Assembly (NCBI GenBank): GCA_016926755.1
Contig: JAFGNZ010000031.1
Span: 1 to 64,000 of the forward strand
From: Myxococcaceae bacterium
GTDB taxonomy: Bacteria; Myxococcota; Myxococcia; Myxococcales; Myxococcaceae
DNA: 64,000 nt
Direction: 5' to 3'
The notes beneath the pieces are model-generated. The model had not been told where the DNA came from. It saw only the letters and a program-made list of their open reading frames with translations, and did no database searches. Numbering within the stretch: position 1 is the first letter of the stretch; the number at the start of each line of letters is the position of its first letter. This document shows positions 4,939-46,885 of this stretch, one piece after another. Made by a program: the position numbers and the translations under genes.

Positions 4939-7176
4939 TCAGAGCCGCAGGCCGAGCTGCACCCCGGGCCAGTACTGAATCGTGTTGTCCCGGCCGAAGG
5001 AGCGCTGGCGCACCGGCAGCGTCGTCAGCTTGCGATGATCCTCCGGCCGGAAGGCGAGGCAGGTGTTGTACGTGGGCCCGGCGAACACGGCGAACCGCCG
5101 CGCCACCTGGAAGCCCAGCATCGCCCGCCCCTGCGTCAGCAGGTTCTGGCCCTCGAACGGATCCTTCATCATGTGCACCGTGTTCACCACCGCGTCCAGG
5201 TCCAGCCAGAAGCGGGAGCCCAGCGGAAGGTGCACGCCCAACCCCAGCCCATAGCTGAAGCGGTCCAGCCGATCGTCCGGCCCCATCCCCGCCACCAGCG
5301 TCGTGTACACGTACTGGCCGCTGAACTTCACCGCCACGTTCGTCAGTTGGATATCGCTGGACCAGATCTCCAGGTGGAGTTGCCCCTTCTCCTCGAAGGT
5401 CAGCAACCCCAGCGGCACGCCCCGCACCTCCTCGGCCACGTTGATCACCCCCACCTGGGCGCCATTCACCACCTTGCCCACGTTGATCACCCCCACCTGG
5501 GCCCCCGTCACATCCCCGCTCACGTTCAGCACCGCCAGCTGCAGGCCGTTCACGCGCTCCGCGCGGTTGAAGCCTGCCGCCGCCTGCAAGCCCGTCATCC
5601 CACCGCCCACCCAGTTCCCCCCCGCCGAGGCCTGCAACCCTTGAAAGTCCCGCCGCGCCATGTTCACCAACGCAGTCGCCTGCAACCCCAGCACGTCCCC
5701 CCCCGCCACGTTCACGCCCGCGGCCATCTGCAAGCCATCCACCTCCCCGGTCGCCACGTTCACGCCCGCGGCCATCTGCAAGCCATCCACCTCCCCGGTC
5801 GCCGCGTTCACGCCCACGGCCATCTGCAGCCCGCGCAGGCCCGCGCCCACCGCGTTCACGCCCACCGCGGCCTGCAGGCCTCGCGCCTCCTCGCTGTAGG
5901 CGTTGGACACCAGCGCCAGCGCCACGCCTCCGGCCAGCGCCGCGCCGTCGTTCATCACCCCGAGCGCCACCTGGTTCTCCACCGGCAAGCCCCCAGCCGC
6001 CGCCGCGTTCACGCTCACCCCCGGCACCAACCCCAGGTTGAAGGGCACCCGCTTGCGGCCGCCCACCCCGCGCGCCTGCACCTGCGCCACGGGCGCATCG
6101 GACGGCCCCCCCAGCACCTCGCCGCCGCGTGACACCGTGGCCTCGCTCAGCACCGAGGCGAACTCCCCCGGTGTCACCGGCGTGCGCTGGCCCTCGGCCA
6201 GGAGGAAGTTCGCCTCGGACACGGCCCCGTTCAGCTCGCGCCGCACCTGGTAGCGCCCGGGCGCCAGCCCCAGCTCCGTGGGCCGCCCAGGCACCTTCAG
6301 CAGCTCCACCACCAGCCCGCCTGCCTCGTCTCGCACGAAGAAGCGGCCCTCCAGCTCTTGCGTCAGCACCAGGCCCGCGGAGGTGGCGCGCAGGTCCGTC
6401 ATCACCAGATCGCCCGTGCCCGCAAGCTCCATGTCATAGGCCGGGTGCTGGGGACCGCCCTGGGTGCGCTCGGTGCGCGCCAGCGTCTCGTGGAAGGCGA
6501 ACTGGTAGGCCTCGTTGAGCGTCACGCGCCCGTCCCGCGTCACGTCCGCGGCGCCGCGCAGGCCGGAGATCAGGTGGTGGGTGAAGAAGGAGCCGCCCAC
6601 CCGATCAGACTCCTGTGAGGCCTCATCCGCGCTCGAGGAGGTGAGGATGGCGTGGCCCTTCACCTGGCTGCCCACATCCACGAGGAAGGCGGGGCGCGGG
6701 GAGCCGCCCTTGCGGCGCGCGAAGGCCCCCGAGGCGCAGGAGTCCAGCACGGCGATGCGCACGTCCGCCGGCAGGCTCGCCAGGGCGCGGCGCAGCTCGC
6801 CATAGTCCACGCGCTCGCCCTGGAGCAGCAGGGCCTCGTCGTCCGAGTGCCCCGAGTAATAAAGGAGCACCTCCACGCGGTGGGCCCCGGAGGTGCGGGC
6901 GGACTCGATCATGCCCCTCACCCGCGCGAAGCCCTCCATGAGCCCCGCGCGCCCGGTGTCCAGCAGCAGCACCTGATCTGCCGCCTCCACCCCGCCCAGC
7001 TCGCCAAGCACCTTGGCGAAGGCGCGCGCATCCGTGGTCGCGTAGCGCAGGCGCACGCGCTCGGGGCCTCCATCATTCACGCCCACCAGCAGCGCCAGCC
7101 GGCGCACGGCCACGGGCGTCTCCGCGGCGGACACTCCAGCCACCAACAGCGTCAGCAGCACCAGCACTCGAGTCAT
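4939..7176 (-). CDS. Exported caspase-like peptidase with GLQ repeats and beta-barrel-like C-terminus
   Basis: A 745-residue protein with a short signal peptide (residues 1-18). Residues about 25-260 are a peptidase C14 caspase-like domain: H110 in YYSGHSD and C147 in DSCASGAF form the expected dyad. Residues about 431-590 are around ten degenerate repeats of the form G-L/A-Q-x-A/V-x-G-V/I-N-x-A, which predict a regular beta structure. The remaining 150 residues alternate hydrophobic and aromatic residues and end in LGLRL, like an outer-membrane barrel. The protease would therefore act outside the cytoplasm. It starts in the stop of the anti-sigma-like gene (ATGA), so the two are translationally coupled. 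The substrate is unknown. Confidence 0.82.
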   Translation of the reverse strand: MTRVLVLLTLLVAGVSAAETPVAVRRLALLVGVNDGGPERVRLRYATTDARAFAKVLGELGGVEAADQVLLLDTGRAGLMEGFARVRGMIESARTSGAHRVEVLLYYSGHSDDEALLLQGERVDYGELRRALASLPADVRIAVLDSCASGAFARRKGGSPRPAFLVDVGSQVKGHAILTSSSADEASQESDRVGGSFFTHHLISGLRGAADVTRDGRVTLNEAYQFAFHETLARTERTQGGPQHPAYDMELAGTGDLVMTDLRATSAGLVLTQELEGRFFVRDEAGGLVVELLKVPGRPTELGLAPGRYQVRRELNGAVSEANFLLAEGQRTPVTPGEFASVLSEATVSRGGEVLGGPSDAPVAQVQARGVGGRKRVPFNLGLVPGVSVNAAAAGGLPVENQVALGVMNDGAALAGGVALALVSNAYSEEARGLQAAVGVNAVGAGLRGLQMAVGVNAATGEVDGLQMAAGVNVATGEVDGLQMAAGVNVAGGDVLGLQATALVNMARRDFQGLQASAGGNWVGGGMTGLQAAAGFNRAERVNGLQLAVLNVSGDVTGAQVGVINVGKVVNGAQVGVINVAEEVRGVPLGLLTFEEKGQLHLEIWSSDIQLTNVAVKFSGQYVYTTLVAGMGPDDRLDRFSYGLGLGVHLPLGSRFWLDLDAVVNTVHMMKDPFEGQNLLTQGRAMLGFQVARRFAVFAGPTYNTCLAFRPEDHRKLTTLPVRQRSFGRDNTIQYWPGVQLGLRL
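5707..5812 (-). repeat. Near-identical tandem 48-base units inside the caspase gene
   Basis: Two consecutive units, plus a diverging third, encode GVNVATGEVDGLQMAA-type repeats. The near-identity at DNA level, compared with the diverged flanking repeats, suggests recent duplication or gene conversion and possible copy-number variation. It is coding and in frame. Confidence 0.75.
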
Positions 7177-7970
7177 GGCGACACCTTCTCCAGGGTGAAG
7201 GACACCTGCGTATAGCCCTCGGGGAGCGCGAGCGGGGTGGTGCGCGCGTCGCCCGAGACAGCAGCCTCGCGGGCGGCGGCGAGCACCTCGTCGAGGGCGA
7301 AGGGGGTGTCCGAGGTGATGAAGAGGAAGCGTTCAAAGGCGGGCGCGTCGTCCAGTGCGTAGGCCCGCGGCAGCGCGTGGGTGCCGGAGCCCGCGAGCGC
7401 AATGGGGGCGGACGCGCTGACATCAGGCGCATGGACGGTCACCACGCCGCGCCCGTCCACGGAGAGGATGACGCCATGGCGGCGGCCTGCGGCCACGTAG
7501 GAGACCTGTACCACGTCACCCGCGGCGGCGGCGGCGCCATCGGCGAGGCGCTCGGGGCCGGCGGCGCCCTGGCGGTGGACGACGAGCTGGGGCATCAGGC
7601 CCTTGGTGCGCGTCACCTCGGGCACCTCCGCCCCGGTGTCCGCGGCGCCCGCGCCCGGGCGTGTCACGGCGAAGAGGGCGGTGGCGGCCAGCATCGGCAC
7701 CAGCGCGAAGGCCGGAGCGAAGCGGCCCCAAGGGCGCTCCTTCGCCGCCTCCCGGCCCTGGGCGGCGCGAGCCAGCACCTCGCGGGCCACGGTGGCGGGG
7801 GGGGGCTTCTCGAGCAGGGCGTGGTTGTCGGCCTCGAGGGCGGCGAGGCGGGCGGGGCCATCGGGCTCGAGGGCGAGCCGGGCGCGGGCGGCGGCCAGCT
7901 CGGTGGGCGGAAGCTCGCCCAGGGCGATGCGCTCCAGCAACCAGCCCGGGGTACGGCGAGGGGAGTTCAT
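7173..7970 (-). CDS. Anti-sigma-like single-pass membrane protein
   Basis: A 265-residue protein. The N-terminus (residues 1-80) is helical and charged (PGWLLERIALGELPP), like the cytosolic sigma-binding part of anti-sigma factors. One hydrophobic segment lies at about residues 84-103 (FAPAFALVPMLAATALFAV), followed by a roughly 160-residue exported domain with a GDVVQVSY segment and a HGVILSVDGRG strand pair, similar to DUF4384-type modules. It sits between a decayed sigma factor and the caspase gene, overlapping both by four bases, the usual myxobacterial sigma / anti-sigma / effector order. With the sigma gene damaged it may have no partner or a distant one. The function is assigned mainly from context. 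Confidence 0.6.
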   Translation of the reverse strand: MNSPRRTPGWLLERIALGELPPTELAAARARLALEPDGPARLAALEADNHALLEKPPPATVAREVLARAAQGREAAKERPWGRFAPAFALVPMLAATALFAVTRPGAGAADTGAEVPEVTRTKGLMPQLVVHRQGAAGPERLADGAAAAAGDVVQVSYVAAGRRHGVILSVDGRGVVTVHAPDVSASAPIALAGSGTHALPRAYALDDAPAFERFLFITSDTPFALDEVLAAAREAAVSGDARTTPLALPEGYTQVSFTLEKVSP

Positions 7971-8330: not shown

Positions 8331-9659
8331 TCATTGTGGGCTGCCTTGCACCTGGCGGGGGTCGCTGGCGTCAGGCACCATGTCCGGCAGCTCGTCCTCG
8401 ACGCCGCGCACCCGCGGCAGGACGAAGGCGACGAGGGTCGTCAGGAGCAGGGCGACCCCGAGGACCGACATGAGGAGCGCGATGCCCCGTCCTTCGCCCA
8501 CCCCGAAGATCGGGCCGAGCGGCCCGGCGAGCGGGCCGCCAGCGGTCATCAGCGGCACGAAGAGCCCATCGGCAAGCGGGCCGGCGAGGAGATAGCTGAT
8601 CGGCGCCATGGACCCGGCGATCATGTGGGTGATGGCGAAGACGCGCCCCTGGACGCTCGGCGCCACCTTGCTCTGCACGATCGCGGTGGTGCAGCCCTCG
8701 ATGAAGGGCAGGCAGAAGAAGACCAGCGCCATGGCGGCCGTCACCCAGGGGATCGACGGCTTCAGGCCGACCAGGAACACGCCGAGCGCCGCCAGCGGCG
8801 TGAACCCGAAGATGCCGTGGACGCGTCGTCTCGGGCCGCCCCAGGTCCCCATCACCACGCTGCCGAGGAGCAGACCGCCGCCGCCGAGGGTCAGCGCCGT
8901 GCCGAGGCCGGCGGGCGAGGCGAAGGAGAGCACCAGAGGCTGCACCAGCGCGTTGGCCAGGCCGAACGAGAAGTTGATGCCGGCCAGGAAGATCATCAGC
9001 GCCAGCAGCCCGCTGCGCTCGACCACGTACCTCCAGCCCGCGGTCAGCTCGCTCCAGCGCTCGGCCCACGTCGATGCGGCCCGGGTCGCGGGATCCTCTG
9101 GAAGGGGCGGAAACCGGACGGCGAGGAGGGTTCCGGCGGCGATGGCGAAGGTCACCAGGTCGAGCAGCAGGATGCCTTCGATGCCGATCAGCCCGAGCAG
9201 GGCGCCGGAGAGCAAGGGCGCGAGAAGCTGGGACACCGCCTGCGTCGCGCGTACCAGGCCGTTGGCGCGCCCGAGCTGCTCCTTCGACACCAGCTGCGCG
9301 ATGACCGCGGAGTACGCGGGGCGCTGGAAGGCACCCATCGAGCTGCTGAAGGTCAGGATGACGTAGACCCACCCCATCTCGACGTGGTCGAAGAAGAAGA
9401 GCAGGGCCAGCGCTGCAGTGCCGGCAGCGGCGCCGGTGTCGCTCAAGATCATCGTCCGCCGCCGGTCCCAGCGGTCGGCGAGCAGGCCGGCGACCGGCAG
9501 CAGCAGCACGCCTGGCACGGCGGCGGCAAAGAGCACGAGGGCGAACTGGGTGACCGAGCCCGTGTTCTGGTAGGCCCAGACGCCGAGCGCAAAGGTTGAC
9601 GCCCCCGACCCCAGGAGCGAGAGCAGCTGGCTGACCGCGATGATGGCGAGTTTCTTCAC
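8331..9659 (-). CDS. MFS exporter (EntS/MdtG-like)
   Basis: A 442-residue major facilitator protein with about twelve hydrophobic segments. Between segments 2 and 3 it has the family loop GLLADRWDRRRTM. The N-terminal half carries SSMGAFQRPAYSA, typical of the enterobactin-exporter-like group of MFS drug and metabolite exporters. It starts seven bases after the NRPS-TE stop and is the last gene of the biosynthetic operon, so export of the finished lipopeptide and self-protection are the likely roles. There is no ABC exporter in the operon. The energy source would be the proton gradient. Confidence 0.88.
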   Translation of the reverse strand: MKKLAIIAVSQLLSLLGSGASTFALGVWAYQNTGSVTQFALVLFAAAVPGVLLLPVAGLLADRWDRRRTMILSDTGAAAGTAALALLFFFDHVEMGWVYVILTFSSSMGAFQRPAYSAVIAQLVSKEQLGRANGLVRATQAVSQLLAPLLSGALLGLIGIEGILLLDLVTFAIAAGTLLAVRFPPLPEDPATRAASTWAERWSELTAGWRYVVERSGLLALMIFLAGINFSFGLANALVQPLVLSFASPAGLGTALTLGGGGLLLGSVVMGTWGGPRRRVHGIFGFTPLAALGVFLVGLKPSIPWVTAAMALVFFCLPFIEGCTTAIVQSKVAPSVQGRVFAITHMIAGSMAPISYLLAGPLADGLFVPLMTAGGPLAGPLGPIFGVGEGRGIALLMSVLGVALLLTTLVAFVLPRVRGVEDELPDMVPDASDPRQVQGSPQ

Positions 9660-9665
9660 CGGGCG

Positions 9666-13829
<4,164 letters not shown>

Positions 13830-13832
<3 letters not shown>

Positions 13833-13848
13833 GGCATCCTCCAAAGGA
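13830..13848 (-). promoter_or_regulatory. Ribosome binding site deciding the NRPS-TE GTG start
   Basis: On the minus strand CTTTGGAGGATGCCGTG places GGAGGA five bases before GTG (codon 13832-13830). The protein following it, VLEKLYANVAKLPPEKQKLL, is the usual beginning of such modules. This supports GTG over the ATG at 13967. Confidence 0.6.
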
Positions 13849-13970
13849 GCGTCCGCCGCCGGGCGACGGACTCCAATTGGTGTGGCGCCCCGGCGAGGAG
13901 CGCGGGAAGACCGCCCGCAGTCCCGCGCGGTGGCGCTGCGGGGCCGGCGGGCGGTCGGAGGGGTCATGCC

Positions 13971-15551
13971 TCAGCGGGCCAAGACGACGTGCTCGTCGAG
14001 GTAGGCCGTGACTCTCCCGGAGCCGAGGAACTCGCGCACCGTGGCGATGATGTCGCACAGCGGCGAGTCGTCACGGTAGACCGGCACGAGCTCGGCAAGC
14101 ATCTGGTGGAAGCGCCGCGTCAGCGGGCTGTACTCGCCGACATCCTTCAGATGAGCTGCCTGATGGCAGGCGCCGAGCATTACCGCCATGATGTTCTCGA
14201 TATTGTCGGCGAGGCGCAGCGACTTGCGGGCGGCGATCAGGCCCATGCTGACGATGTCCTGGTTCTGGCCGTTCGACGGGAGCGACTTGATCGACGCGGG
14301 CGCCGCCAGATCGAGGTTCTCCGAGGCGATGCTCGTGGCCAGGTATTGGCCGCCCTCGTAGCCGGAGAAGAGGCCTGGCTCGCCGCTCGCGAGGAAGGGC
14401 GAGAGGTGGCCGTTCAGGTGCGGATCGACGAGGCGGTTGAGCTGGCGCTCCACGAGCACGCCGATCTCGGCCAGCGCGATGTTGAGATAGTCGCAGGCCA
14501 TCGCCACGTACTGGCCGTGGAAGTTGGCCCCATGGAAGCTGTTCTCGGGGCGATCGAAGAAGAGCGGGTTGTCGTTGCAGGAGTTGAGCTCCTCCTCGAC
14601 GATGCGCTTGCAGAAGTCGAGCGTCTCGATCACGGGGCCGATGACCTGCGGGATGCACCGCAGCGAGTAGGCGCTCTGCAGGTGGATGCCGGAGTCGGCG
14701 ACATCATCGCCGCCGACACGCTCGGAGATGGCCTTCATGATGTCGGCATGCTCGCGGGTGCGCTCGCTGCCGGCGAGCAGCTCGCGCATCACCTCCGCGA
14801 CGAGGATCTGGCCTCGGTGGTTCTTGAGCTCGTGGCCCTCGTGAGCGAAAGGACGAGTCGAGCCGTGCAGCGCCTGCACGACGTCGGCGCTGGCGACCAG
14901 CGACAGGCGGGCCAGGCGGTAGGCCTTGACCAGCGCCAGCGCCGCGGCGCCGGTCATGCCAGAGGTGCCGTTGATCAGCGACAATGCCTCCTTGTAGCCG
15001 AGCTCGAGGGGCTCCATCCCCACCTCGGCGAGCACGTCGGCGGCGGGGCGGAACTCGCCGTCACCCTTGCGGAGGTGGCCGTAGCCGATGAGCGGCAGCG
15101 CGAGGTGCGACATCGTTGCGAGATCGCCGCTGGCGCCGAGCGAGCCCTGCTCCGGGATGCGCGGCGTCAGGCCCAGGTTGAGCAGCTCGGCGATCATCTC
15201 GACAGCGCGCGGGCTGACGCCGGAATGGCCCTTCATGTGGCAGTTGATGCGTGCCAGCATCATGGCGCGGACCACGTCTGGTGCGAAGACCGGGCCGCCG
15301 CCGGCGGCATGGCTGAGCAGCAGGTGCCGCTGCAGGTCGGACTTGTACCTCGGCGGCACGATGAAGTTGATCAGCTCGCCGAAGCCGGTGTTGACCCCGT
15401 AGATCGGGTAGCTCTGCTGGCCCCATTCCTGGACGCGCTCGTAGGTGGCGCGCACCTTCTTGAGCTGACCCGCATCGAGCTCGACGCGCTCGTTCGCGAC
15501 GGCGACGGCGAAGACCTCATTGATAGTATGACCCTGTCCAGTGACTAGCAT
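13971..15551 (-). CDS. MIO-type tyrosine 2,3-aminomutase / ammonia-lyase
   Basis: A 526-residue member of the aromatic amino acid lyase/mutase family. The self-cyclising triad A140-S141-G142 (in GSLGASGDL) forms the MIO cofactor; Tyr51 in YGVNTGFGEL is the catalytic Tyr loop and His81 follows in SHAAGGG. Later stretches (FHGANFHGQYVAMACDYLN, then SIKSLPSNGQNQDIVSMG) resemble, from memory, myxobacterial tyrosine aminomutases such as CmdF of chondramide biosynthesis more than housekeeping histidine lyases. There are no other hut genes here, and it sits inside the NRPS operon. I infer that it converts L-Tyr to beta-Tyr for an NRPS module. A lyase giving coumarate is the alternative. Confidence 0.8.
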   Translation of the reverse strand: MLVTGQGHTINEVFAVAVANERVELDAGQLKKVRATYERVQEWGQQSYPIYGVNTGFGELINFIVPPRYKSDLQRHLLLSHAAGGGPVFAPDVVRAMMLARINCHMKGHSGVSPRAVEMIAELLNLGLTPRIPEQGSLGASGDLATMSHLALPLIGYGHLRKGDGEFRPAADVLAEVGMEPLELGYKEALSLINGTSGMTGAAALALVKAYRLARLSLVASADVVQALHGSTRPFAHEGHELKNHRGQILVAEVMRELLAGSERTREHADIMKAISERVGGDDVADSGIHLQSAYSLRCIPQVIGPVIETLDFCKRIVEEELNSCNDNPLFFDRPENSFHGANFHGQYVAMACDYLNIALAEIGVLVERQLNRLVDPHLNGHLSPFLASGEPGLFSGYEGGQYLATSIASENLDLAAPASIKSLPSNGQNQDIVSMGLIAARKSLRLADNIENIMAVMLGACHQAAHLKDVGEYSPLTRRFHQMLAELVPVYRDDSPLCDIIATVREFLGSGRVTAYLDEHVVLAR

Positions 15552-15576
15552 GGGATATCCTCTTTTGCAGTTGCAT

Positions 15577-15593
15577 CGCCGACGTCGTCGGCG
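15577..15593. other. Short hairpin between two biosynthetic genes
   Basis: CGCCGAC-GTC-GTCGGCG forms a 7-base-pair stem in the 54-base gap between the GT-NRPS stop and the aminomutase start. It has no U tract, so it is not a classical terminator. It could affect mRNA processing or be chance in GC-rich DNA. Confidence 0.3.
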
Positions 15594-15605
15594 AGAGAGC
15601 CGAGC

Positions 15606-18600
15606 TCAGGTTGTCAGTTTGATGATGCCCTCACTCGCTTGTGAGAGCAGGCGTTCAGTATCGGCGTCAGAGAGATCTTCGACGCGGGAAAGGAGAGTAG
15701 CCAGCCGATTCTCGAGATCGCTGGCGTCGCCAGTGGGCTTCTTGGCGGCGAGGAACTCCGCGAGCTGGGCGACCGTGGGATGGCCGAAGACGTGCTGGAC
15801 GTAGAAGTCGACCCCCTCGCTGCTGCGCAGCCGGTTGACGAGGCGGGTGGCGAGCAGCGAATGGCCGCCAAGGACGAAGAAGTCGTCGTGACGGCCGACG
15901 CCTTCGGCGTCGAGGCCGAGGAGCTCCGCGAAGATGCCGGCGACGGTGCGCTCGAGCTGCCCCTGTGGCACCTCGTAGGGGCGCCCGGCCTCGACGTTGA
16001 GGGCGCGCAGGTGCTGGCGGTCGATCTTGCCATTGGCGAGGCGCGGCATGGCCTCGAGCCAGACCAGCGCCGACGGCACCATGAAGCGCGGCAGCTCTTC
16101 GCCGAGGGCGGCGAGCACCGTTGCGGCGCTGGCCTCGCCGGCGGGGACGGCGTAGGCGACGAGGCGCTGCGTGCCGCGCTCGTCGAGAACGACGACGGCG
16201 CATTCCTCGACCTCCGGCCGGCGGCCGAGCACGGCCTCGACCTCGGAGATCTCCACCCGCAAGCCGCGGATCTTCACCTGGCCGTCGGTGCGGCCGAGGA
16301 GCTCGAGGGTGCCGTCCGGGAGCCAGCGGGCCAGATCGCCCGTGCGGTAGACCCGGTCCGGGTAGTCGTCGTGCAGCGGGTTCTGCACGAAGGCGCGCTC
16401 GGTGAGCTCCGGCATGCCGTGATAGCCAGCGGCCAGGAACGGCGAGCGCACGAAGATCTCGCCCGGTACGCCCGTGGCGCAGGCCTGGCCCTCGCCGTCG
16501 ATGACGAAGAGGCGGCAGCCGTCGACGGGCGTGCCGACCGGGACGCGCAGCCGCTCGGGATTCAGGTGCTCGATAGCGTGGCTGGTGACCAGGATCGACT
16601 CGGTCGGACCATAGACGTTCCAGAGCCGCGTCCGCTCGCCGAAGCGCTTCCGCCACGCGGCGGCGAGCGCGATGGGCAGGTCCTCCCCTGTGAGCAGGAC
16701 GGCGCGGAGATCGGCGGGGGCCTCCTCGCCGGCCAACGCCAGCAGCTCGCGGCAGAAGCTCGGCACCATCTGCACCAGCGAGATGCGCTCGTCCTTGAGC
16801 CACTGCAGCACGCGCGTTGGCTCCTGGCGCAGGTCGCGCGGGGCCACGGTGACGGTAGCGCCGGAGCAGAGGGCGCCGAAGACCTCGACGTAGCAGGGGT
16901 CGTGGCCGACGGAGATCCACTGCGCGATCGGCTGGCCAGGCTGGATGCCGAAGCGCTCGCTGAACCAGCGGATCAGGTAGTGGAAGCCGCCATGTGTCTG
17001 TACGATGCCCTTGGGCTTGCCGGTCGAGCCCGAAGTGTAGGCGACGTAGATCGGGTCATCGGGCCGCGGCGTTCGGCTCATGCCCTCGCCGGCGTCGTCC
17101 GCCTCGGGGTCGAGGCGCGTGGCGTCGATGAGGGCCGGAGCCCCCGCCCGGCGCCAGGCCTCCAGCGTCTCGGGGTGCCCGCTGGCGGCGGCGTGGACGA
17201 GCACGCGGGCGCCGACGTCGCTGACGATGTGGCGGATGCGCGCCGCCGGGTAGTCTGGCTCGAGGCAGACGAAGGGGCTGCCGGCGTGCAGCGCCGCGAG
17301 CATCCCCACCACGTGATCGAGCCCATTGCCGAGCAGCAGCGCCACCGGCGCTCCGGCACCACCGAGCGCGTCGATGTGAGCCGCCAGGCGGCGCGCCGCG
17401 CGGTCGAGCTGGCGGTAGGTCAACGTCCCCTCGGCGGCCGCCACGGCGGTCTCCTCTCCGCTGCGCTCCGCCCAGCGCGACACGTCCTGGTGGACGCCCC
17501 CCTCGGGCAGCGTCCACCGCGGCGGCGTGCGCTCGGGCAGCAGGCGCTGGCGCTCCTCGCCGAGCAGCATCGGCGCGCGGCCGACGGCGGCCTCTGGTGC
17601 TCCGACCAGGCTCTCGACCAGGGTGAGGAAGTGGTCGCGCAGCCGCTCCATGCTGGCGCGCTCGAAGAGCTCGATGTTGTACTCGATGGCGCCGGTGACC
17701 CGGCCGTCCGGCTCGTCCCACAGCTCGAGCGCCAGATCGACGCGCGCCGTCTCGGCCGGCGTCGGGTGCCAGTCGGTCTCGACGGCGTGGAAGGAGACCT
17801 TCCTCTCCGGCCGCTGGTTGAGGGCGAAGATGACCTGGAAGATCGGGTGACGGCTCGGATCGCGCTCCGGCGCCAGCGCTTCGACCAGCTTCTCGAAGGG
17901 CAGCTCCTGGTGCTCGTAGCCTTCGAGGGCACCGCGGCGCACGCGGCCGACCAGGTCCCCGAAGCTCGCTCCCGGCTCCAGCCGGGTGCGCAGCACGAGC
18001 ATGTTGACGAAGTTGCCGACGATCGCCTCCAGCTCGCTGCGGTCTCGGCCGGCGGTCGGCGTGCCCACGACGATGTCCTTTTGGCCGCTGTACCGATAGA
18101 GCAGGACCTTGAAGGCGGCGAGCAGGACGATGAAGAGCGATGCGTTCTCGCGCTTTGCCAGGCGGCGCACGCGCTGCGCCAGCTCGGGAGAGAAGGCGAA
18201 GGGCAGGTGCGCACCGCGGAAGCCCTGCAGCGCCGGGCGCGGGCGGTCGAGGGGCAGGGCCAGCGAGGCCGGGAGGTCCTTCAGGCGGTCGCGCCAGAAC
18301 GACAGCAGGTGCTCGAGCGAGCGGCCCGACAGGCGCTGGCGCTGCCACGCGGCGAAGTCCGCGTACTGGACAGAGAGCGGCTCCAGGTGGAGGGGCTCCC
18401 CGAGGCAGTGGGCGCGGTAGAGGGCGGTCATCTCCCCCAGCAAGATGCCCGTCGACCAGCCGTCGTAGATCATGTGGTGGAACACGAGGACGAGCAGGTG
18501 GCGCTCGTCCGCCAGGCGCACGAGGCGGGCGCGCCACAAGCATTCGGCGGAGATGTCGAAGCCGCGCTCGTCCTCCTCGCGGAAGATCTCCTGGAGGCGC

Positions 18601-20248
18601 TGGTCCTGGGCGCTGGCTGGGAGGTGCCGGAGGTCCTCCTGCACGAGCGGCACCGGCATCGACGCGTGGATCCGCTGAACAGGCTCGCCGTCGACGCTGG
18701 GGAACGTGGTGCGCAGGGGCTCGTGGCGCTCGATCAGGTCCGCCAGGCTCGCCGCGAGCCGGTCGGCGCGGAAAGGACCGGTCAGCAAGTACGGTGCGAT
18801 CGCCACGCTGTAGCTGCCGCGGTGCAGCTCATCGAGGAGCCAGAAGCGCACCTGCGCGAACGATAACGGGAAGTCGTCGGCACGGCCGTCCTCACGCCGC
18901 GCAAGGCGAGGGATCGTGGTGGCACGGCGCCCCTGCTTACGTTCCAGGAGCCGCGCCGCCAGTGCCGCCCGCTGGCCCGGCGAGAGCTCGGCCACACGGC
19001 GGGCGAGGTGGTCCCGGCGGGACGCGGGAGCGCTCGCCCGGGCGACGGCGGGCCGCCGCCCGCACACCCGCTCGAAGCAGCGCTCGAAGCGGCCGAGGTC
19101 AATGCTGTCGACGAAGGCGCGGGCCGCCGCGCGCGACTGCTGGACGAGGGCCTGGTAGTGCGCCCGGTCGCCCAGCACGCGGGCCAGCGCCTCCTGCCAG
19201 GGGCCGAGATCCTGCTCGGGGATGACCGGGATCGGCTTGGCGGACGGATCGGGTCGCTCATAGTCAACGATCGGCCGGACCGGCAGCAAGTACGGCACGC
19301 CGAGCTTGGCTTCGGGAATTCCGCCGACGTCGCTTGCCAGGACCGGCAGGCCGCGCAGCATCGCCTCGACGACGATGAGCCCGAACGCCTCGCCCCACAG
19401 CGACGGCACGAGCAGCACGCGGGCCTGCGCGAAGATCTCGTCGATACGCTCCCGCGGCTCGAGGACGGTGACGTTCGGCAGGCCAGTGATCTGCCGGCGA
19501 TCCTCGGTCTCGGTGCCCCAGGCGGCGACGGTGGCAAAGGGCACCTCCGGGAAGCGTCTCGACAGGCCGAGGAAGATCGATAGACCCTTGAGCGGTGAGG
19601 CATTGACGAGGGTGACGGCACCTCGGTCGAAGGACGGTTGTACTGCCGGATCGGGCTCCCCGTAGACCGGGAACGGCACCACCTCCGACGCGCAGCCCCC
19701 CCAGCGGGCGATGTAGTCACGCACGTACTCGCTGACGGTGAGGATGCCGGGCGTGCGCTTGAAGAGCGTGGTCTTGCGGCCGTCCTTGTCGAAAGCGGCC
19801 GGGCCGAAGGGCAGCGTCGCCTGCGAGTGGGCGAGGTAGATCACCCGCTCGGCGGCGGCGTCGAGGGCGGCGCTGTGGAAGAGACCCGTCTGGTCCTCTG
19901 AGACGAGGACGACGTCGGGACGGGTGGCCTCGATCAGGCGCCGCAGGCCCGCGTAGAAGCGCGGGTAGACGTCAAGGGTGAACTCCGAGACGATCCCGTG
20001 AACCTCGACCTTGCGATGGCGGTAGACGACGAAGTCCTGGTCCTCGCGCACCAGCTCGCAGCCCCTCTCCGCGAGCGAGCGATGCAAGATCTCGCGCTCG
20101 TCGGGCCGCGGCTTGATCGCCTCGTAGGCTGGCGCGTAGACGAAGCAGTCGTGGCCACGCTCGGCCAGACCCTCCATCAGCAGGCGATTGGCTTTGTGGG
20201 CGCCGCCGAAGGGGTAGAGATAGTCGATGAGCTGGATCAGCAGGATCC

Positions 20249-20252
<4 letters not shown>
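15606..20252 (-). CDS. Glycosyltransferase fused to NRPS module (GT4-C-A-T)
   Basis: A 1548-residue fusion. Residues 1 to about 390 are a GT-B glycosyltransferase of GT4 type: GGAHKANRLLMEGL at the N-terminus, nucleotide-side SPLKGL, and the EX7E motif in GEAFGLIVVEAM. A C domain (HHMIYDG from about residue 592), an A domain (A3 YTSGSTGKPKG near 1073) and a T domain (GGHSLL, Ser1465) follow directly. The A4 region reads VGHDPCYVEVFGAL instead of a usual FDxSxW, so the substrate pocket is atypical. The start at 20252 overlaps the upstream stop as ATGA and has AAGGGG before it. It is the second module of the line; the GT may glycosylate the carrier-bound chain or the product. No TE or epimerase. 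Confidence 0.9.
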
Positions 20253-30292
<10,040 letters not shown>

Positions 30293-31010: not shown

Positions 31011-31150
31011 GGTGGGCCTCGTTCTACTGGGGATGCTCACCGGATGGCCCCCGCTGGATCCTCCGGACGCTGTCGAGGCTGGGGGGGAGACGGGCTTGCC
31101 GCCAGGCATGCGGGCTCACCTGCTGCCGGGCCTGCCACGGCGACAGCAGC

Positions 31151-31592
31151 ACCAGCCCGGCCGTGCTCGAAGAAGAAGAAGATGCCTTCGGACTCGAGCA
31201 GCCGGAGCACGAAGTCCAGATCGGACTCGCGGTACTGCACGCAGTGCTCGCGCTTGGGGTAGTTGCCGGAGAGCGCCAGACGGTGCTCCACATTCCCCGC
31301 CGCCAGCACCTTGGCAACAATGTTCGGGACAGAGAGGTTCTGGAAGATGCGGCTGCGGCGGACGTGGCGCAGCTTCCCCAGGACCGGCCCGATCCGGACG
31401 CGATACTCGGGCCGGCCGTGATGCAAGCCCAGATCCGCCACCTCCTCCACCCAACCGTGGCGGCTCCAGGGAGGTGGGGAAGAACTCGACCAGGAACTCG
31501 AACGGCTCGGAGAGCGCCTCCTCGCCGCTCAGGCGAGCGACGGCGAGGTCCGCCGCTGCGAACAATTCCGCCTGGAGCTCGAATACGAGCCG
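31151..31592 (-). pseudogene. VgrG remnant, deleted and frameshifted
   Basis: Two frames give pieces of a VgrG N-terminal gp27-like region. The first, about 31592-31475, reads RLVFELQAELFAAADLAVAR and SEPFEFLVEFFPT. The second, about 31450-31151, reads [40 protein letters not shown] and EGIFFFFEHG. Roughly 60 residues between them are missing, and the downstream hub and spike parts are replaced by the transposase fragment. It is clearly inactive and shows that this island once had a third spike gene. Confidence 0.75.
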
Positions 31593-31704
31593 ATGGTCGC
31601 GAGCCACATCTCCACGAGATCCACGCGTCAGGACAGATTTCTGCCCCCTACCCGCACGAACCCCCCGCGTGCTATGCCATGTCTGGACGGAGACCTGTTG
31701 GGCT

Positions 31705-32289
31705 ATGACTTCACCCAGAGACCTTCCCCACGCAGGAGTTCCAAGCACCACCCGAGATGACCCCATCAATTCCCCACGTGTGGGGTGGCTCGTCGGGGTG
31801 AATGAGGCGGGGCTTCCGCTCGTGGACTTCCCTGGCAACCCAGCGGGGCCTTGTGGCGCCCGGAGGACCGTCTCTCTGGAGCCCGAGCTCTTGCAGCGCG
31901 CGGCCGCCCAGCACCCAGGGGTCGTGCTGCTCTTCGAGAATGGGGATCCACGCTTGCCGCTGATCATCGGCTTGGTCCAGACAGAGAGCGCCACTCCGCT
32001 GCTGGATGCGGTGCTCGCCGGATCGAGCGCTGAAGCTCCCTTGGCGCCAGCAAGTGCGCCGGAGCGGGAGGAAGCGCCACAAGCCGAGGATGTCCCAGCT
32101 CAGGCCGTGGAGGCCCACGTGGATGGCAAGCGCGTCGTCCTCGAGGGAGCGGACGAGATCGTCCTGAAGTGTGGTCAGGCCAGCATCACCCTGCGACGTA
32201 ACGGTAAGCTCATCATCAAGGGGACCTACGTCGAGACCCATTCCACCGGCGTCAACCGCATCAAGGGTGGCAGCGTCCAGGTCAACTGA
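31705..32289 (+). CDS. DUF6484 T6SS-associated protein
   Basis: A 194-residue soluble protein. The N-terminal part has VGWLVGVNEAGLPLVDFPGN, RTVSLEPELLQRA and VLLFENGDPRLPLIIGLVQ, an OB-like beta domain seen in T6SS loci. After an Ala/Glu/Pro linker the C-terminal part (VVLEGADEIVLKCGQASITL, RRNGKLIIKGTYVETHS, RIKGGSVQVN) is a repeating beta strand unit like the tip of VgrG spikes. It is probably a structural or loading partner of VgrG. It is followed after three bases by the TIGR02270 gene, and diverges from the VgrG remnant. The start is the first ATG in the conserved frame. Confidence 0.78.
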   Translation: MTSPRDLPHAGVPSTTRDDPINSPRVGWLVGVNEAGLPLVDFPGNPAGPCGARRTVSLEPELLQRAAAQHPGVVLLFENGDPRLPLIIGLVQTESATPLLDAVLAGSSAEAPLAPASAPEREEAPQAEDVPAQAVEAHVDGKRVVLEGADEIVLKCGQASITLRRNGKLIIKGTYVETHSTGVNRIKGGSVQVN

Positions 32290-32292
32290 GCC

Positions 32293-33600
32293 ATGCAACC
32301 CGTGTTGATGGATGTGTTGGAGGAGCACCTCAGCGAGGCGGCATTCCTCTGGTCTCAGTGGGAGAGCGCGCTGGTGTCCGCCAGCCATGGCCTGGAGGAC
32401 ACCGCCCACTGTGAGGAGCGATTGCTGGCCCACGTGGACGGGCTCGTCGTAGGGGGCGAAGCGGCCGTAGGAGAGTTGTTGCTGCCAGCCCTCGAGACGG
32501 GCGAGCGAGAGCGGATCTCCGCCGCGGCGCTCGCGCTGCTCGCGGGGGGAGGGAAGCGGGAGCTGAGTGAGCTGCTGAAGGTGTTCGACTCGGGAGACGA
32601 GGTGCAGCGCGCGGCCATCGGCCGTGCGATGGAGCTGAGTGAGCGAGAGGGCCTGGAGGCGGCGCTGCTCGAGCGGATCTCCGCAGAGGATCCCGCTCTG
32701 CGGGCCATGGCCTTCCGGGTGCTGGCATTTCGCGGCGCGGTGCCGCAGGAGGAGCGGACGCAGTGGCTCCACGGGGACGAGGCCGATCCGGTGATCTGCG
32801 CGCTTCGGGATGCGCGGCCCTTACCTCGGGATGTCGTCCAGACGGTGTTGCCCCAGCTCCTCGTGGACCCTCGCCCAGGCGTGCCCGAGGCCGCCCTGCT
32901 GGCAGGGCTCGTGTCCGGCGCACGTGCGGCGTGGAAGGTGTGCCACAAGGTCGCGGAGGAAGGTGGCGTGGGACGGCGACAGTGCCTGGCCTTGCTGGCG
33001 CTGGGAGGGGACGAACGGGATGTGGGGCTGCTCGCGCGGCTGTTGCGCGAGGAGGAGCTGAGGGCGGACGTGCTCTGGGCGCTTGGGTTCAGTGGACAGG
33101 CGCTCGCTGCGGAGGTGTGCCTGGAGTGGATGGGCGATGACGGAGTTGCGGCGCTGGCGGGCGAGGCGTTCTCCGCCATCACCGGGTTGAGGCTGGAGGG
33201 CGAGTATCGGAGCGCCGCGGAGAAGGAGGCTGATGCGCTCATCCCTCTGGAGGAAGAGGACCTGGATGCCAACCTGGTGCCGGGACCCGAGACCCGTCTG
33301 CCGGTCCCTGTCCAGGAGGCGGTGAAGCGCTGGTGGCAGAAGGCTCAGAAGGGCTTCGAGCGCGGCACACGTTATCTGCACGGGAGCAAGCTTGACGCCG
33401 GCCGGCTCCTGGAGGCGCTCGGGACCGAGCCGATGCGGCGGCGGCCAGTGCTTGCCCTGGAGCTGGCCATCCGGAGCCGAGGTGCGCACCTGCTTCAACC
33501 GCGGGCCTTCACGCTCAGGCAGCGCGCGCAGTTACGCGCGGCGCTGGCGGGACGTTCCTCGGTCTCGATGAACCCGTTCTCGAAGCTGTTCGGGCTCTGA
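32293..33600 (+). CDS. TIGR02270 family HEAT-like T6SS-associated protein
   Basis: A 435-residue, mostly helical, acidic protein. It is made of about 30-residue HEAT-like repeats rich in Ala, Leu and Glu (for example AAALALLAGGGKRELSELL and LARLLREEELRADVLWALG). The N-terminus VLEEHLSEAAFLWSQWESAL and the GL-rich stretch around LAGEAFSAITGL match TIGR02270 proteins, which are found beside VgrG and DUF6484 genes. The expected role is a scaffold or adaptor in spike loading; no enzyme motif is seen. It forms an operon with the DUF6484 gene and converges on the first VgrG gene, 19 bases away, with no terminator visible in that gap. Confidence 0.82.
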   Translation: MQPVLMDVLEEHLSEAAFLWSQWESALVSASHGLEDTAHCEERLLAHVDGLVVGGEAAVGELLLPALETGERERISAAALALLAGGGKRELSELLKVFDSGDEVQRAAIGRAMELSEREGLEAALLERISAEDPALRAMAFRVLAFRGAVPQEERTQWLHGDEADPVICALRDARPLPRDVVQTVLPQLLVDPRPGVPEAALLAGLVSGARAAWKVCHKVAEEGGVGRRQCLALLALGGDERDVGLLARLLREEELRADVLWALGFSGQALAAEVCLEWMGDDGVAALAGEAFSAITGLRLEGEYRSAAEKEADALIPLEEEDLDANLVPGPETRLPVPVQEAVKRWWQKAQKGFERGTRYLHGSKLDAGRLLEALGTEPMRRRPVLALELAIRSRGAHLLQPRAFTLRQRAQLRAALAGRSSVSMNPFSKLFGL

Positions 33601-33619
33601 GGGGCGGTGGGGACGGCCG

Positions 33620-35884
33620 TCAGTTCTCGGCGATCTTCGAGCCCTTGATGATGACATCACCGCTGGCGGTGACCTCGATCTTGGCGCCCTTGATGACCAC
33701 GTCCCCGTTCTTCTTCACCTCCAGGGTCGCCGAGCCCACCTTCAGGGTGAACTGCTCTTCGGCCACCAGGGAGATCTCCTTGGCGCTCAGCGTGTAGCTG
33801 TCCTTGGCGGCGTGGGAGAGCTTACCGCCCACGTTCAAGACGAGGTCCTTGTCCACCTTGAGGGTGCGGTTCTTCTCGATCTGCTCGGAGAGATTGCCGC
33901 CGACCTGCAGGGTGCGCGAGCCCTTCACCGTCTCGGACTTCTTGGCACCCACCGCCTCCACCTTGGCCCCGCCCACCTGCTCGGACATGAGGCCGCCCAC
34001 GAGCTGGTTGAGGGCCGCCCCCACGGTCACAGCATAGCCCCCGCCGACGTTGAGCAGCTTGCCCAACGCCACCGTCTCCGCGGAGGCCATCGCCACCGTC
34101 ACATTCTGGTTGCCGTTCACCGAGATGGACTGGTCGCCCACCACGGACTCGGTGTGGTTGCCCTGCACGGTGGTGGTGCGGTTCTTGACGACCGTCAGGC
34201 TCTGATTGCCGCCGATCATGCTGTCGTCGTTCTTGTTGACCTGCAGCGACTGGTTGCCCTCGATGGTGCGGCTGCGGTCCTTCCGGACGAGCAGCGTCTC
34301 GTTGCCCCGCACCTGCTGCGTCTTGTCGTTCTCGACGATGATGTTGAAGTCCTTCTCGGCGTGCAGGTACACCTCCTCGGAGCCTGCCGCGTCCTCGATG
34401 CGCAGCTCGTTGAAGCCGCTGCCGCCGGGGCTGGAGTTGGAGCGCAGCGTGCTCTGCGTCTTGTTGTCGGGCAGGGCGATGGGCGTGGGGTTGTGGCCGT
34501 TGTAGACGCTGCCGGTGACGAGCGGGCGATCCGGATCCCCCTCCAGGAACTCCACCACCACCTCCTGGCCGATGCGCGGCAGGTAGAGCGCACCCCAGCC
34601 GGGGCCGGCCCAGGCCTGGGCCACTCGGATCCAGCACGAGCTCTTGTCGTTGTTCTGGCCCTCGCGGTCCCAGTGGAACTGGACCTTGATGCGGCCGTGC
34701 TCGTCGGTGTGGATCTCCTCGGCAGGGGGCCCGACCACGATGGCCGTCTGGGCCCCGGAGATAGTGGGCTGGGGGGTGATGCGCGGGGGGCGGTAGGGGA
34801 CCTGGGAGGGGATGCAGACGAACTCGGTGCGGTAGGCCTCCTTGCTCTCCGAGGAGGCCTGCCCGAAGGTGAGGACCTCGGGCTGACGGCCCATGTGGCG
34901 GGCGGAGAGCACCAGGTAGTCCCGGTTCAGCGTGCCCACGGGGTGTTCGTCCAGCTCGAAGGTATAGCCCGCGACCAAGCGACGGCAGTTGCTGGCCCCG
35001 GTCGCCATCTCACTGCGCACCCGCAGCTCCTCCATGCGGACCTGGGCCAGTGTCCTGCCGGTGCCCAGCTCCGTGTAGCGGGCGGGGTAGTCGTAGATCT
35101 CGAGGTCCGGCTCACCATCCTGGGCGTGGGAGAGGGTGGAGAGATCCAGTGCGGGACGCAGGAAGTTGAAGTCCCTCAGGGCGACGGCGCCGGGCTGGAC
35201 CTCCACGCTCGCGGCGAACTCATGGATGGACTCACTGGCGGCCACCATGTTGCTCAGGTCGCGGAACACCAGGAGAGGGTCGCCGGGCATGGCCTCGCAG
35301 GTGGACGAGGCGTCGTTGAGGATCAGGGTGTGGGCATCCTCGGTGTGCTCGAAGTAATAGAAGATCCCCTCCTCCTCGAGCAGGCGTGAGACGAAGTCGA
35401 GGTCCGACTCGCGGTACTGAACGCAGTACTCGAGCTTGCGGTAGGAGCCCTGGAGCAACTGCTTGTGCTCCACCTTCGCTTCGTCGAGCACTTTGTGGAC
35501 GATCTCCGGGATGGTCATCTCCTGGAAGATGCGGCTTCGCCGGGTGTGGCGCAGCGTCCACAGGCGAGGCACCACGGTGATGCGGCAGTGCTGGCGCTCC
35601 GGGCCTCGGTTGGACTCCCAGCGCACCACGCGCGAGACGATGCCGTGGAAGAAGCGATCCGTCCCGTCACCCAGGTGCACAGTCAGCAGGGCGCTCTGGC
35701 CTAGCAGCTCCTTCTCGTCCAGTGAGACGTCCACCGGCGCGGCCAGGGTGACCTGGACGGAGTAGGGCTGGGAGACGGTCTCCTCGGCCTCGAACCCCAC
35801 CACGGCCAGCTCTCTTGCCGCATGGGGGCCAGCCTGGAAATCGAACTCAGCTTGATTTGCGAGGAGGGCAGCGGTGGCGACCAT
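33620..35884 (-). CDS. vgrG: VgrG spike protein 1
   Basis: A 754-residue T6SS spike protein from the ATG at 35884; the frame is open further upstream but crosses the divergent VgrG. The gp27-like N-terminus carries [39 protein letters not shown] and EGIFYYFEH. The gp5 OB-fold region follows with [20 protein letters not shown] and [19 protein letters not shown], then [11 protein letters not shown]. The C-terminal 250 residues are a long beta-helix of repeats such as [12 protein letters not shown] and QTVxGNxT-type strands, ending in [20 protein letters not shown]. There is no added toxin domain. It pierces target membranes and carries PAAR-type tips and effectors. Confidence 0.96.
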
Positions 35885-36037
35885 AGGGAAACCCCCTGCC
35901 CACAGTGTCATCGAGAGCGGTCGACACCACAAGGGCCGAACTGAAAAGAGCGGCGTTCGTGATATGACGAACTGGCTTCTGGCATCCGGGCGGAGGCGTG
36001 CATCGAGCGGCCCGGAGGCATGCCGCAGAGGGGCACT
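35885..36037. promoter_or_regulatory. Divergent promoter region between two vgrG genes
   Basis: A 153-base gap separates the two outward-facing spike genes and must hold both promoters. Around 35925-35965 it is less GC-rich than its neighbours. I find no convincing -35/-10 pair or sigma-54 (GG-N10-GC) site by eye. Confidence 0.4.
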
Positions 36038-38527
36038 ATGGCAGGCTCCAGCGTTCCAGCCTTCTCGTTGCGGGTGGGGCCCTTCGACCCGGGCGAGCTC
36101 ACCGTGGACAGCTTCGCGGGAGCGGAGGGGCTGAGCCGCCTCTATGAATTCCAGATCGACTTCCACCCCGCCGGGGATGTGCCCCTGGAGGCGCCGGAGT
36201 TGCTGGGCGCCGAGGCGCTGCTGACCTTCGAGGTGCCCGGCGGCGGCCCGCGCTTCCTCCACGGGAAGGTTCGCTCCATCAGCGCCCTGGGGCATCGCGG
36301 GGGGAGGGGGCGGTACCGCATCTGGGTGGTGCCCCAGCTGTGGTGGCTGACGCGCGTGCACCAGAGCCGCATCTTCCAGGGCAAGTCGGTGCCGGACATC
36401 CTCGAGGAGGTGCTGGGCGGCGCGGGCGTCGAGGTGAGGTTGTCGCTGAGCGGCAGCTACGAGGCGCGCGAGTACTGTACGCAGTACCGAGAGACGGACT
36501 TCACCTTCCTCAGCAGGCTCATGGAGTGGGAGGGGCTCTTCTACTTCTTCGAGCACTCAGAGAGCGGCCACACCCTGGTGATCGGGGATGCCCGCTCGGT
36601 GCATGAGCCGCTGCCGGAGGGGGCCGTGGTGCCGCTGCGGGAAGACCGCGGCCAGGCCACGGACGGTGAGTACCTCTCCGCCCTGCAGCGGGTGCATCGG
36701 CTGCGTCCCGGGAAGGTGCACATCAAGGACTACGACTTTGTGAGGCCCTCGCTGGACGTGTCGGGCAAGGGGCAGGACACCTCCCATGGCGTCGCCTCAC
36801 TGGAGGTGTATGACTACCCCGGTGAGTACGTGGCGCCCGCTGTGGGTAAGAGCGCCGCCAAGGTGCGCCTGGAAGAGCTGGTGCAGGCGGCGCGTACGCT
36901 GGAGGGAGAGGCGGTATGTCCGCGGCTGACTCCTGGCTACCGCTTCGAGGTGGAGGACGACGGCACCTATTCAGGCGAGTACCTGGCGGTGGAGGTGGTG
37001 CATACGGGCCGGCAGCCGGAGACACCCGGGGGCCGCGAGGCCATGGGCTCTCTGTACCGCAACAGGTTCAAGTGCATGCCGGCCGCGGTGCCTTTCCGTC
37101 CCAGGCGCACCACGCCCCTGCCGGACATTCCGGGGGTGCAGACGGCGACGGTGGTGGGGCCCGCGGGCGAGGAGATCCACACGGATGAGCACGGGCGCAT
37201 CAAGGTGCAGTTCCACTGGGATCGCGAGGGCCAGCGGGACGACAAGGCCTCGTGCTGGGTGCGCGTAGGCCAGGCCTGGGGAGGACCCGCCTGGGGGGCG
37301 TTGTATCTGCCGCGCATCGGCCAGGAGGTGGTGGTGCGGTTCCTGGAGGGCAATCCGGACAGGCCGCTCATCGCGGGCACCGTCTACAATGGAAGCAACC
37401 CGACACCTTATGTCCTGCCGGACGAGAAGACGAAGTCCACCCTCAAGAGCGCCTCCAGCCTGGGCAGTGAGGGCTTCAACGAGTTCCGCATCGAGGACGC
37501 CACGGGCGACGAGGAGCTCTACGCCCACGCGCAGAAGGACGAGAACCTCGTCACGGAGAATGACAAGGACCAGCAGGTGCGTGGCTATGAGGAGCTGCTG
37601 GTGAAGAAGGAGCGCTCCCGGACGGTGGAGGGCAACCAGACCTTGTCGGTGGGCTACGATGACGATAGCCGCGTGGAGGGCAACCAGACCCTGACGGTGA
37701 CGGGCAACCGGACCACCACGACGAAGCTCAACCACCTGGAGTCCGTGGAGAAGAACCAGACCCTCACTGTCGGCGGGAAGTTCACCTCGCTCGTCACCCA
37801 GGCCGCCGCGGAGACCGTGGGGGCCGCGAAGGCGCTCTCCATCGGCGCGGCCTACGGCGTCAACGTCGCCCTGGCCCTCAATGAGGCCGTCGGCGGCCTC
37901 AAGTCCGTGGAGGTGGCCGCGGCCCAGAAGGAGATCGTCGCCGGGGCGCGTCAGGAGAACATCGTCAAGGACAAGGAGGTCAAGGTCGGTGGGGACTGGG
38001 ACAGCCGCATCAAGGGGTACCTGGCGCTCACCATGGGCAAGGATCTGGATGAGCAGATCGGCAAGGAGAGCCTGCTCTGGGTGAAGGAGCCGACGATCTT
38101 CCATGCCAGGTCCTTCTCGCTCAAGGCAGACAAGTTCTCCCTCATCGTCGGGGGGCACCTCATCCTGAGCGTGGAGCAGTCGGGCAACGTGGCCTTCAAC
38201 GTCAAGACGTTCACCTTGGAGGGCTCGGACATCAAGCTCAAGGGCAAGTCCATCAAGAAGCAGGCGGCCGGCTCGTTGAAGGACAAGTCCGTCAAGCCCA
38301 AGGAGCTGAAGGATCTCGAGGATCCCGAGCCGCTCAAGGTGGAGGTCGAGCTGAAGGACACGGAGGGCAAGCCGGTGAAGGATCAGGCCTTCGAGCTCCA
38401 CTTCCCCGATGGCACCATCAAGAAGGGCAAGGTGGATGGGAGCGGCAAGGCCGTGGTGGAGAAGGTGCCCCCAGGGGATTACCGCATCGTGTTCCCGGAG
38501 CTCGAGGCCCGCATCAACAAGGGCTGA
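36038..38527 (+). CDS. vgrG: VgrG spike protein 2 with C-terminal extension
   Basis: An 829-residue VgrG. I prefer the ATG at 36038 (GAGGGG spaced five bases before it) to the in-frame ATG at 36020. It has the same layout as VgrG 1: [40 protein letters not shown], the OB region [20 protein letters not shown], then [12 protein letters not shown] and the repeat needle with [11 protein letters not shown]. The last about 65 residues differ: after a Lys-rich linker, [20 protein letters not shown] and [16 protein letters not shown] form a small Ig/transthyretin-like beta domain. That tip probably docks or presents the next gene's product. It is 40 bases upstream of the amidohydrolase gene. Confidence 0.95.
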
Positions 38528-38567
38528 GCGCCTTCACTGAAAGCCGAAGTCCCAGGGTGGATCTGCG

Positions 38568-40712: not shown

Positions 40713-40724
40713 CCAGGTGCGGAC

Positions 40725-41861: not shown

Positions 41862-41886
41862 TGGACGCCAGGCCGAGGCAGCGGGC

Positions 41887-44167: not shown

Positions 44168-44213
44168 TCCAGTACTCCCAATCCGCTAGGGTCCGGTGTG
44201 TCGTGAGCAGGCC

Positions 44214-44711: not shown

Positions 44712-44720
44712 GGTGACCTC

Positions 44721-46810: not shown

Positions 46811-46885
46811 GAGGTTCTCCGTCAGGAGAGGCGGGCGCCTGGGCAGGGCACCCAAGCGCTGAGCATAGCACCGGGTGGGGCAGGA

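What the first reader, a model, noticed from the sequence alone, without database searches (positions are those of the whole stretch)
8331..30292. Iturin-type beta-amino-acyl starter combined with an aminomutase in a myxobacterial lipopeptide operon
The order FAAL-ACP-KS-AT-ACP-AMT-C-A-T is read directly from motifs and active-site residues. The same order (acyl ligase, KS, aminotransferase, condensation) is known in mycosubtilin/iturin synthetases, where AT is supplied in trans; here AT is in cis. It is followed by two more modules, an MIO enzyme and an exporter. I infer a beta-amino-fatty-acyl tripeptide, possibly with beta-Tyr, linear or closed by the TE through the beta-amino group. I cannot name a matching known compound.
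Basis: partly seen in the sequence, partly recalled or inferred. Interest (0 to 1): 0.88.

Follow-up and report, generated by a model that had tools for sequence, protein, structure and literature searches.

The report
Myxobacterial beta-amino lipopeptide operon with glycosyltransferase-NRPS
This is a five-gene myxobacterial assembly line that probably makes a small, sugar-bearing lipopeptide from a beta-amino fatty acid, tyrosine, beta-tyrosine and a third amino acid; each part is of a known kind, but the combination, and a glycosyltransferase built into the peptide synthetase, was not found elsewhere.

Summary
Genes at 30292-8331 (minus strand) encode FAAL-ACP-KS-AT-ACP-AMT-C-A-T, then C-A-T, an MIO enzyme, C-A-T-TE and an MFS exporter.

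Two inferences are now firmer. The MIO enzyme passes NCBI's tyrosine 2,3-aminomutase cutoff. Adenylation domain 2 groups with SgcC1, the beta-tyrosine adenylation enzyme of C-1027 (support 0.92, seventh of 172 A domains tested), and its gene lies directly upstream of the aminomutase gene, as in enediyne clusters. Domain 1 has the same code as the Tyr module of a cystomanamide-type cluster in the same genus. Domain 3 is unresolved.

What is unusual is the combination with beta-tyrosine and the fused glycosyltransferase, seen in no other held Myxococcota genome. Predicted product: glycosylated beta-aminoacyl-Tyr-beta-Tyr-Xaa. Sugar, its position, lipid length and release mode are inferred or unknown. 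New variant of a known kind.

The parts
20249..30292 (-). Gene 1: FAAL-ACP-KS-AT-ACP-AMT-C-A-T (3347 aa); loads a fatty acid, extends it once, transaminates the beta-keto group, adds amino acid 1 (A code DASTVAAVCK, probably Tyr)
28493..30292 (-). FAAL domain (fatty acyl-AMP ligase)
26963..28237 (-). KS domain
25688..26659 (-). AT domain in cis (GHSAGE, HGFH; probably malonyl)
   Evidence: specificity from motif, inference
23468..24805 (-). AMT domain, mycosubtilin MycA type, PLP lysine motif YGKVLGGG
15606..20252 (-). Gene 2: GT-C-A-T (1548 aa); glycosyltransferase fused to module 2
18879..20252 (-). GT4-type glycosyltransferase domain plus linker (EX7E motif EAFGLIVVEA)
15996..17501 (-). A domain 2, SgcC1-like, code DPVQLTVLVK, predicted beta-Tyr
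13971..15551 (-). Gene 3: MIO enzyme, predicted tyrosine 2,3-aminomutase (526 aa)
9666..13967 (-). Gene 4: C-A-T-TE (1433 aa), A code DVWTIGVIWK (substrate unresolved), releases the product
8331..9659 (-). Gene 5: MFS exporter

Best explanation
A collinear PKS-NRPS operon for a short glycosylated beta-amino lipopeptide. FAAL activates a free fatty acid onto ACP1; KS-AT add one malonate unit; AMT turns the beta-keto thioester into a 3-amino acyl chain; module 1 adds Tyr; module 2 adds beta-Tyr made by the adjacent tyrosine 2,3-aminomutase; module 3 adds an unknown residue and the TE releases the chain; the GT domain fused in front of module 2 transfers a hexose-type sugar from primary metabolism, most simply to a phenol hydroxyl or the free 3-amino group; the MFS protein exports the product. 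Shown by sequence: domain order, intact motifs, MycA-type AMT, TAM-type MIO, SgcC1-type A2, GT fusion. Inferred: Tyr at module 1, beta-Tyr at module 2, sugar transfer and its site, malonyl AT, export. Unknown: lipid length, A3 substrate, linear or cyclic release.
For: AMT: 444 bits to MycA AMT, 219 to the next family. FAAL. MIO: TIGR03832 521.7 bits over its cutoff of 501, HAL models below theirs; 428 bits to SgTAM; 43-47% to enediyne TAMs against about 37% to PAMs; TAM residues YGVNTGFGE, SH, ASG, NQD, not the HAL motif QED. A2: seventh of 172 A domains for SgcC1 (265 bits, median 162, while A1 ranks 69 and A3 103), clade support 0.924, shares D235, P236, Q278 and L299 with SgcC1. The A gene directly precedes the TAM gene in C-1027 and other enediyne plasmids, as here. 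The two other clade members, G048 and G077, were checked afterwards and both have an MIO gene in the same cluster. A1 has the same code as the last module of a cystomanamide-type cluster in the same genus (FkbH confirmed), and cystomanamide B carries Tyr there (PMC9581180). MxvJ sets the precedent that a myxobacterial TAM supplies beta-Tyr to an NRPS (PMC9853869).
Against: Two SgcC1-clade members sit with a HAL-type rather than a TAM-type MIO, so the clade need not mean beta-Tyr. The GT model was poor (pLDDT 58), solved GT relatives are remote (28 bits), and no sugar-nucleotide gene lies in the operon, so donor, acceptor and even activity are unproven. A3 matches no reference found here.
Confidence: 0.68

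Rival explanations
1. Same line, but the GT domain is inactive or acts only on a free product or another substrate; the product is an unglycosylated beta-aminoacyl-Tyr-beta-Tyr-Xaa.
For: GT relatives are remote, no sugar genes in the operon, weak GT model.
Against: EX7E and other GT4 motifs intact; the frame is maintained across GT and C; the closest plasmid relatives lie in a gene cluster with ACP, C-domain, TE and FkbH-type genes.
Confidence: 0.25
2. The MIO enzyme is an aromatic ammonia lyase, or supplies beta-Tyr to another pathway; module 2 takes an alpha-amino acid.
For: Its nearest homologue (G083, 57%) is not in an NRPS cluster and falls below both the TAM and the HAL cutoff; lyase and mutase differ by few residues.
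Against: P0003 passes the TAM cutoff, lies between two NRPS genes of one operon, and A2 is SgcC1-like.
Confidence: 0.15
3. It is a cystomanamide cluster or another already characterised lipopeptide.
For: Same kind of starter and Tyr code; a cystomanamide-type cluster exists in the same genus; cystomanamides C and D carry a sugar (PMC9581180).
Against: Cystomanamide has five modules, Asn-Asn-Phe-FkbH-Tyr, with E domains (PMC9581180); here there are three modules, no E, no FkbH, plus a TAM and a fused GT. GT and MIO relatives are nearly absent from the phylum. MIBiG itself could not be searched.
Confidence: 0.07

Closest known systems
Cystomanamide (ctm) synthetase, Cystobacter
   Same: Myxobacterial beta-amino fatty acyl starter, NRPS modules including Tyr, glycosylated linear lipopeptide (PMC9581180); related FAAL-KS-AT-AMT line in the same genus
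   Different: Five modules Asn-Asn-Phe-glycerate-Tyr with E and FkbH domains; no aminomutase; no hit to this GT in the cystomanamide-type region of G082
Mycosubtilin/iturin synthetases (MycA)
   Same: Acyl ligase, KS and AMT of the same families ahead of the first NRPS module
   Different: AT in trans; heptapeptide; no aminomutase, no GT (from general knowledge)
Laxaphycin/scytocyclamide (LxaA, LxaB, LxaE) and puwainaphycin
   Same: FAAL-ACP, KS, AT-ACP-AMT set with AT in cis (PMC7524897, PMC4219810)
   Different: Domains split over several proteins, 10-12 residue rings, no TAM, no fused GT
C-1027 SgcC1/SgcC4 pair
   Same: beta-Tyr A domain with the TAM gene directly downstream
   Different: SgcC1 is not in a modular NRPS line; the product is an enediyne side chain
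Myxovalargin MxvJ
   Same: Myxobacterial TAM supplying (S)-beta-Tyr to an NRPS module (PMC9853869)
   Different: Isovaleryl starter, no PKS-AMT starter reported, agmatine terminus

Membership tests
Beta-amino fatty acyl (iturin/cystomanamide/laxaphycin-type) starter lines | Acyl ligase (FAAL type) at the start | tested here: met
Beta-amino fatty acyl (iturin/cystomanamide/laxaphycin-type) starter lines | KS and AMT on one extension module, AMT of MycA type, PLP lysine kept | tested here: met
Beta-amino fatty acyl (iturin/cystomanamide/laxaphycin-type) starter lines | Product carries a 3-amino acyl chain | not testable with these tools
   needs metabolomics
Iturin family proper | AT in trans and heptapeptide NRPS | tested here: not met
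   AT in cis and three modules
Cystomanamide synthetases | Modules Asn-Asn-Phe-FkbH-Tyr with E domains | tested here: not met
   Three modules, codes DASTVAAVCK, DPVQLTVLVK, DVWTIGVIWK; no E or FkbH seen; features as in PMC9581180
Tyrosine 2,3-aminomutases | Passes TIGR03832 cutoff; MIO triad; Tyr-type pocket rather than HAL pocket | tested here: met
Tyrosine 2,3-aminomutases | Makes beta-Tyr from L-Tyr | not testable with these tools
   enzyme assay needed
SgcC1-like beta-Tyr A domains | Clusters with SgcC1 and shares key pocket residues | tested here: met
GT4 glycosyltransferases | Pfam GT4 N- and C-terminal domains above gathering score, EX7E | tested here: met
GT4 glycosyltransferases | GT-B fold in a confident model | tested here: inconclusive
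   model pLDDT 58

The most novel reading that the evidence does not exclude
The fused glycosyltransferase is an assembly-line domain that glycosylates a carrier-bound intermediate (for example beta-aminoacyl-Tyr on T1) before condensation with beta-Tyr, so that glycosylation is a programmed elongation step and not a tailoring step after release.
Probability: 0.2. Interest if true: 0.75.

Novelty: new variant of a known kind. Interest (0 to 1): 0.46.

Why it matters
It predicts a lipopeptide with two different beta-amino units (a transaminase-made beta-amino acyl chain and an aminomutase-made beta-Tyr) plus a sugar, from only three NRPS modules: small enough to express and dissect. The GT-NRPS fusion offers a direct test of whether sugars can be added during chain assembly, and a beta-amino-acid-accepting module next to a GT would be useful for engineering.

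Tried and rejected
Cis-AT as the distinguishing feature: rejected, common. Genes at 4939-7970 as part of the operon: rejected, the pair is kept in relatives without the cluster. Searches for other GT-NRPS fusions: none among 195 Myxococcota genomes; the genome-contig scan found nothing close; the plasmid relatives examined are stand-alone GTs. MIO in viral contigs: none. Structure of the GT: low confidence, not used. A shared LSPxQ linker motif as proof that GT and NRPS belong together: too weak. The cystomanamide, DASTVAAVCK and GT-domain literature searches gave no matching compound.

Full report
What is there. Five genes run on the minus strand from 30292 to 8331. Gene 1 (30292-20249) is FAAL-ACP-KS-AT-ACP-AMT-C-A-T; gene 2 is C-A-T with an extra N-terminal domain; gene 3 is an MIO enzyme; gene 4 is C-A-T-TE; gene 5 is an MFS exporter. 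Motifs for KS, AT, AMT, carrier proteins, C, TE and MIO are intact.

What was missed. The long open frame 20825-15606 overlaps gene 1; its first 191 codons are out-of-frame noise. The real start is the ATG at 20252, which overlaps the gene 1 stop as ATGA. The first 400 residues match Pfam GT4 glycosyltransferase families with the EX7E motif. GC by codon position is steady across the GT-C junction, so the fusion is one coding frame.

Starter unit. The AMT domain gives 444 bits to the solved mycosubtilin MycA aminotransferase and 219 to the next family; the FAAL is closest to FAAL structures. AMT relatives above the threshold occur in 51 of 195 Myxococcota genomes. In nearly all of the 20 or so regions mapped they sit in KS-AT-AMT lines with AT in cis, and FAAL-KS-AT-AMT lines also occur in cyanobacteria, Serratia and others. 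Laxaphycin and puwainaphycin are published examples (PMC7524897, PMC4219810). A genome of the same genus (G082) holds a cystomanamide-type cluster with codes reading Asn, Asn, Phe, FkbH, then DASTVAAVCK, as expected from PMC9581180. The starter is therefore ordinary for the group.

Aminomutase and beta-tyrosine. P0003 passes the NCBIfam tyrosine 2,3-aminomutase cutoff (521.7 against 501) and fails the HAL ones; its best solved relative is SgTAM, and it keeps TAM-type rather than HAL-type residues. A2 has code DPVQLTVLVK. C-1027 SgcC1, read from its plasmid (that this AMP-binding gene beside the aminomutase gene is SgcC1, the beta-Tyr adenylation enzyme, is from general knowledge), has DPAQLMLAAK in the same alignment. 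Among 172 A domains collected, A2 ranks seventh for SgcC1, while A1 and A3 sit near the median; the tree puts A2 with SgcC1-type domains at 0.924. In the enediyne plasmids the A gene lies directly upstream of the TAM gene, as here. The two remaining clade members were then checked and both have an MIO gene in their cluster, though of HAL type, so the clade alone does not prove beta-Tyr. None of the AMT loci mapped had an MIO gene.

Other residues. A1 has the code of the Tyr module of the cystomanamide-type cluster, so Tyr is likely. A3 (DVWTIGVIWK) is open. No E domain was found.

Glycosyltransferase. Within 195 Myxococcota genomes the only other match is a stand-alone 39% relative in G194, beside GDP-heptose-type sugar genes. 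Plasmid relatives at about 40% include one in a Streptomyces cluster with ACP, C-domain, TE and FkbH-type genes. Donor and acceptor are unknown; the structural model was too weak to use. Whether the sugar goes on during assembly or after release cannot be decided from sequence.

Setting. The operon has GC 0.718, against 0.664 on its right side. The two genes on its left (7970-4939) are kept together in relatives without the cluster, so they are not part of it. The genus is probably Stigmatella in the GTDB sense: one genome of the same genus (G079) has the length I remember for S. aurantiaca DW4/3-1. This is from memory and not tested.

Verdict. A real, intact gene cluster; a new variant of a known kind. 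The combination of beta-amino acyl starter, SgcC1-type beta-Tyr module, TAM and fused GT was not found elsewhere in the collections searched.

Noticed in passing
L202:1216-2751 (G077) and L201:15667-17202 (G048): NRPS/PKS clusters with an SgcC1-like A domain (code DACQLSLLAK) and a HAL-type MIO gene just upstream of a C-A synthetase gene in the same orientation: possibly a histidine 2,3-aminomutase feeding beta-His to an NRPS.
   Followed up: partly
L055, L056, L204 (G082:C13:283000-333999): A cystomanamide-type cluster in the same genus as the window, with codes for Asn, Asn, Phe, an FkbH module and Tyr.
   Followed up: yes
L007:8854-10482 (G083): An MIO enzyme 57% identical to P0003 but outside any NRPS cluster, below both the TAM and the HAL cutoff: an orphan of unknown activity.
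   Followed up: partly
L008:14305-19929 (G194): Stand-alone relative of the window's GT beside nucleotidyltransferase/HAD and GHMP-kinase genes, suggesting a heptose-type donor there.
   Followed up: no
4939-7970: Two-gene unit (a small protein without a Pfam match and a caspase-fold protein) conserved across the family and independent of the operon.
   Followed up: partly
31012-46855: VgrG-like spike protein (33620-36556) with DUF6484 and DUF2169 proteins, a T6SS-type effector/loading region.
   Followed up: no
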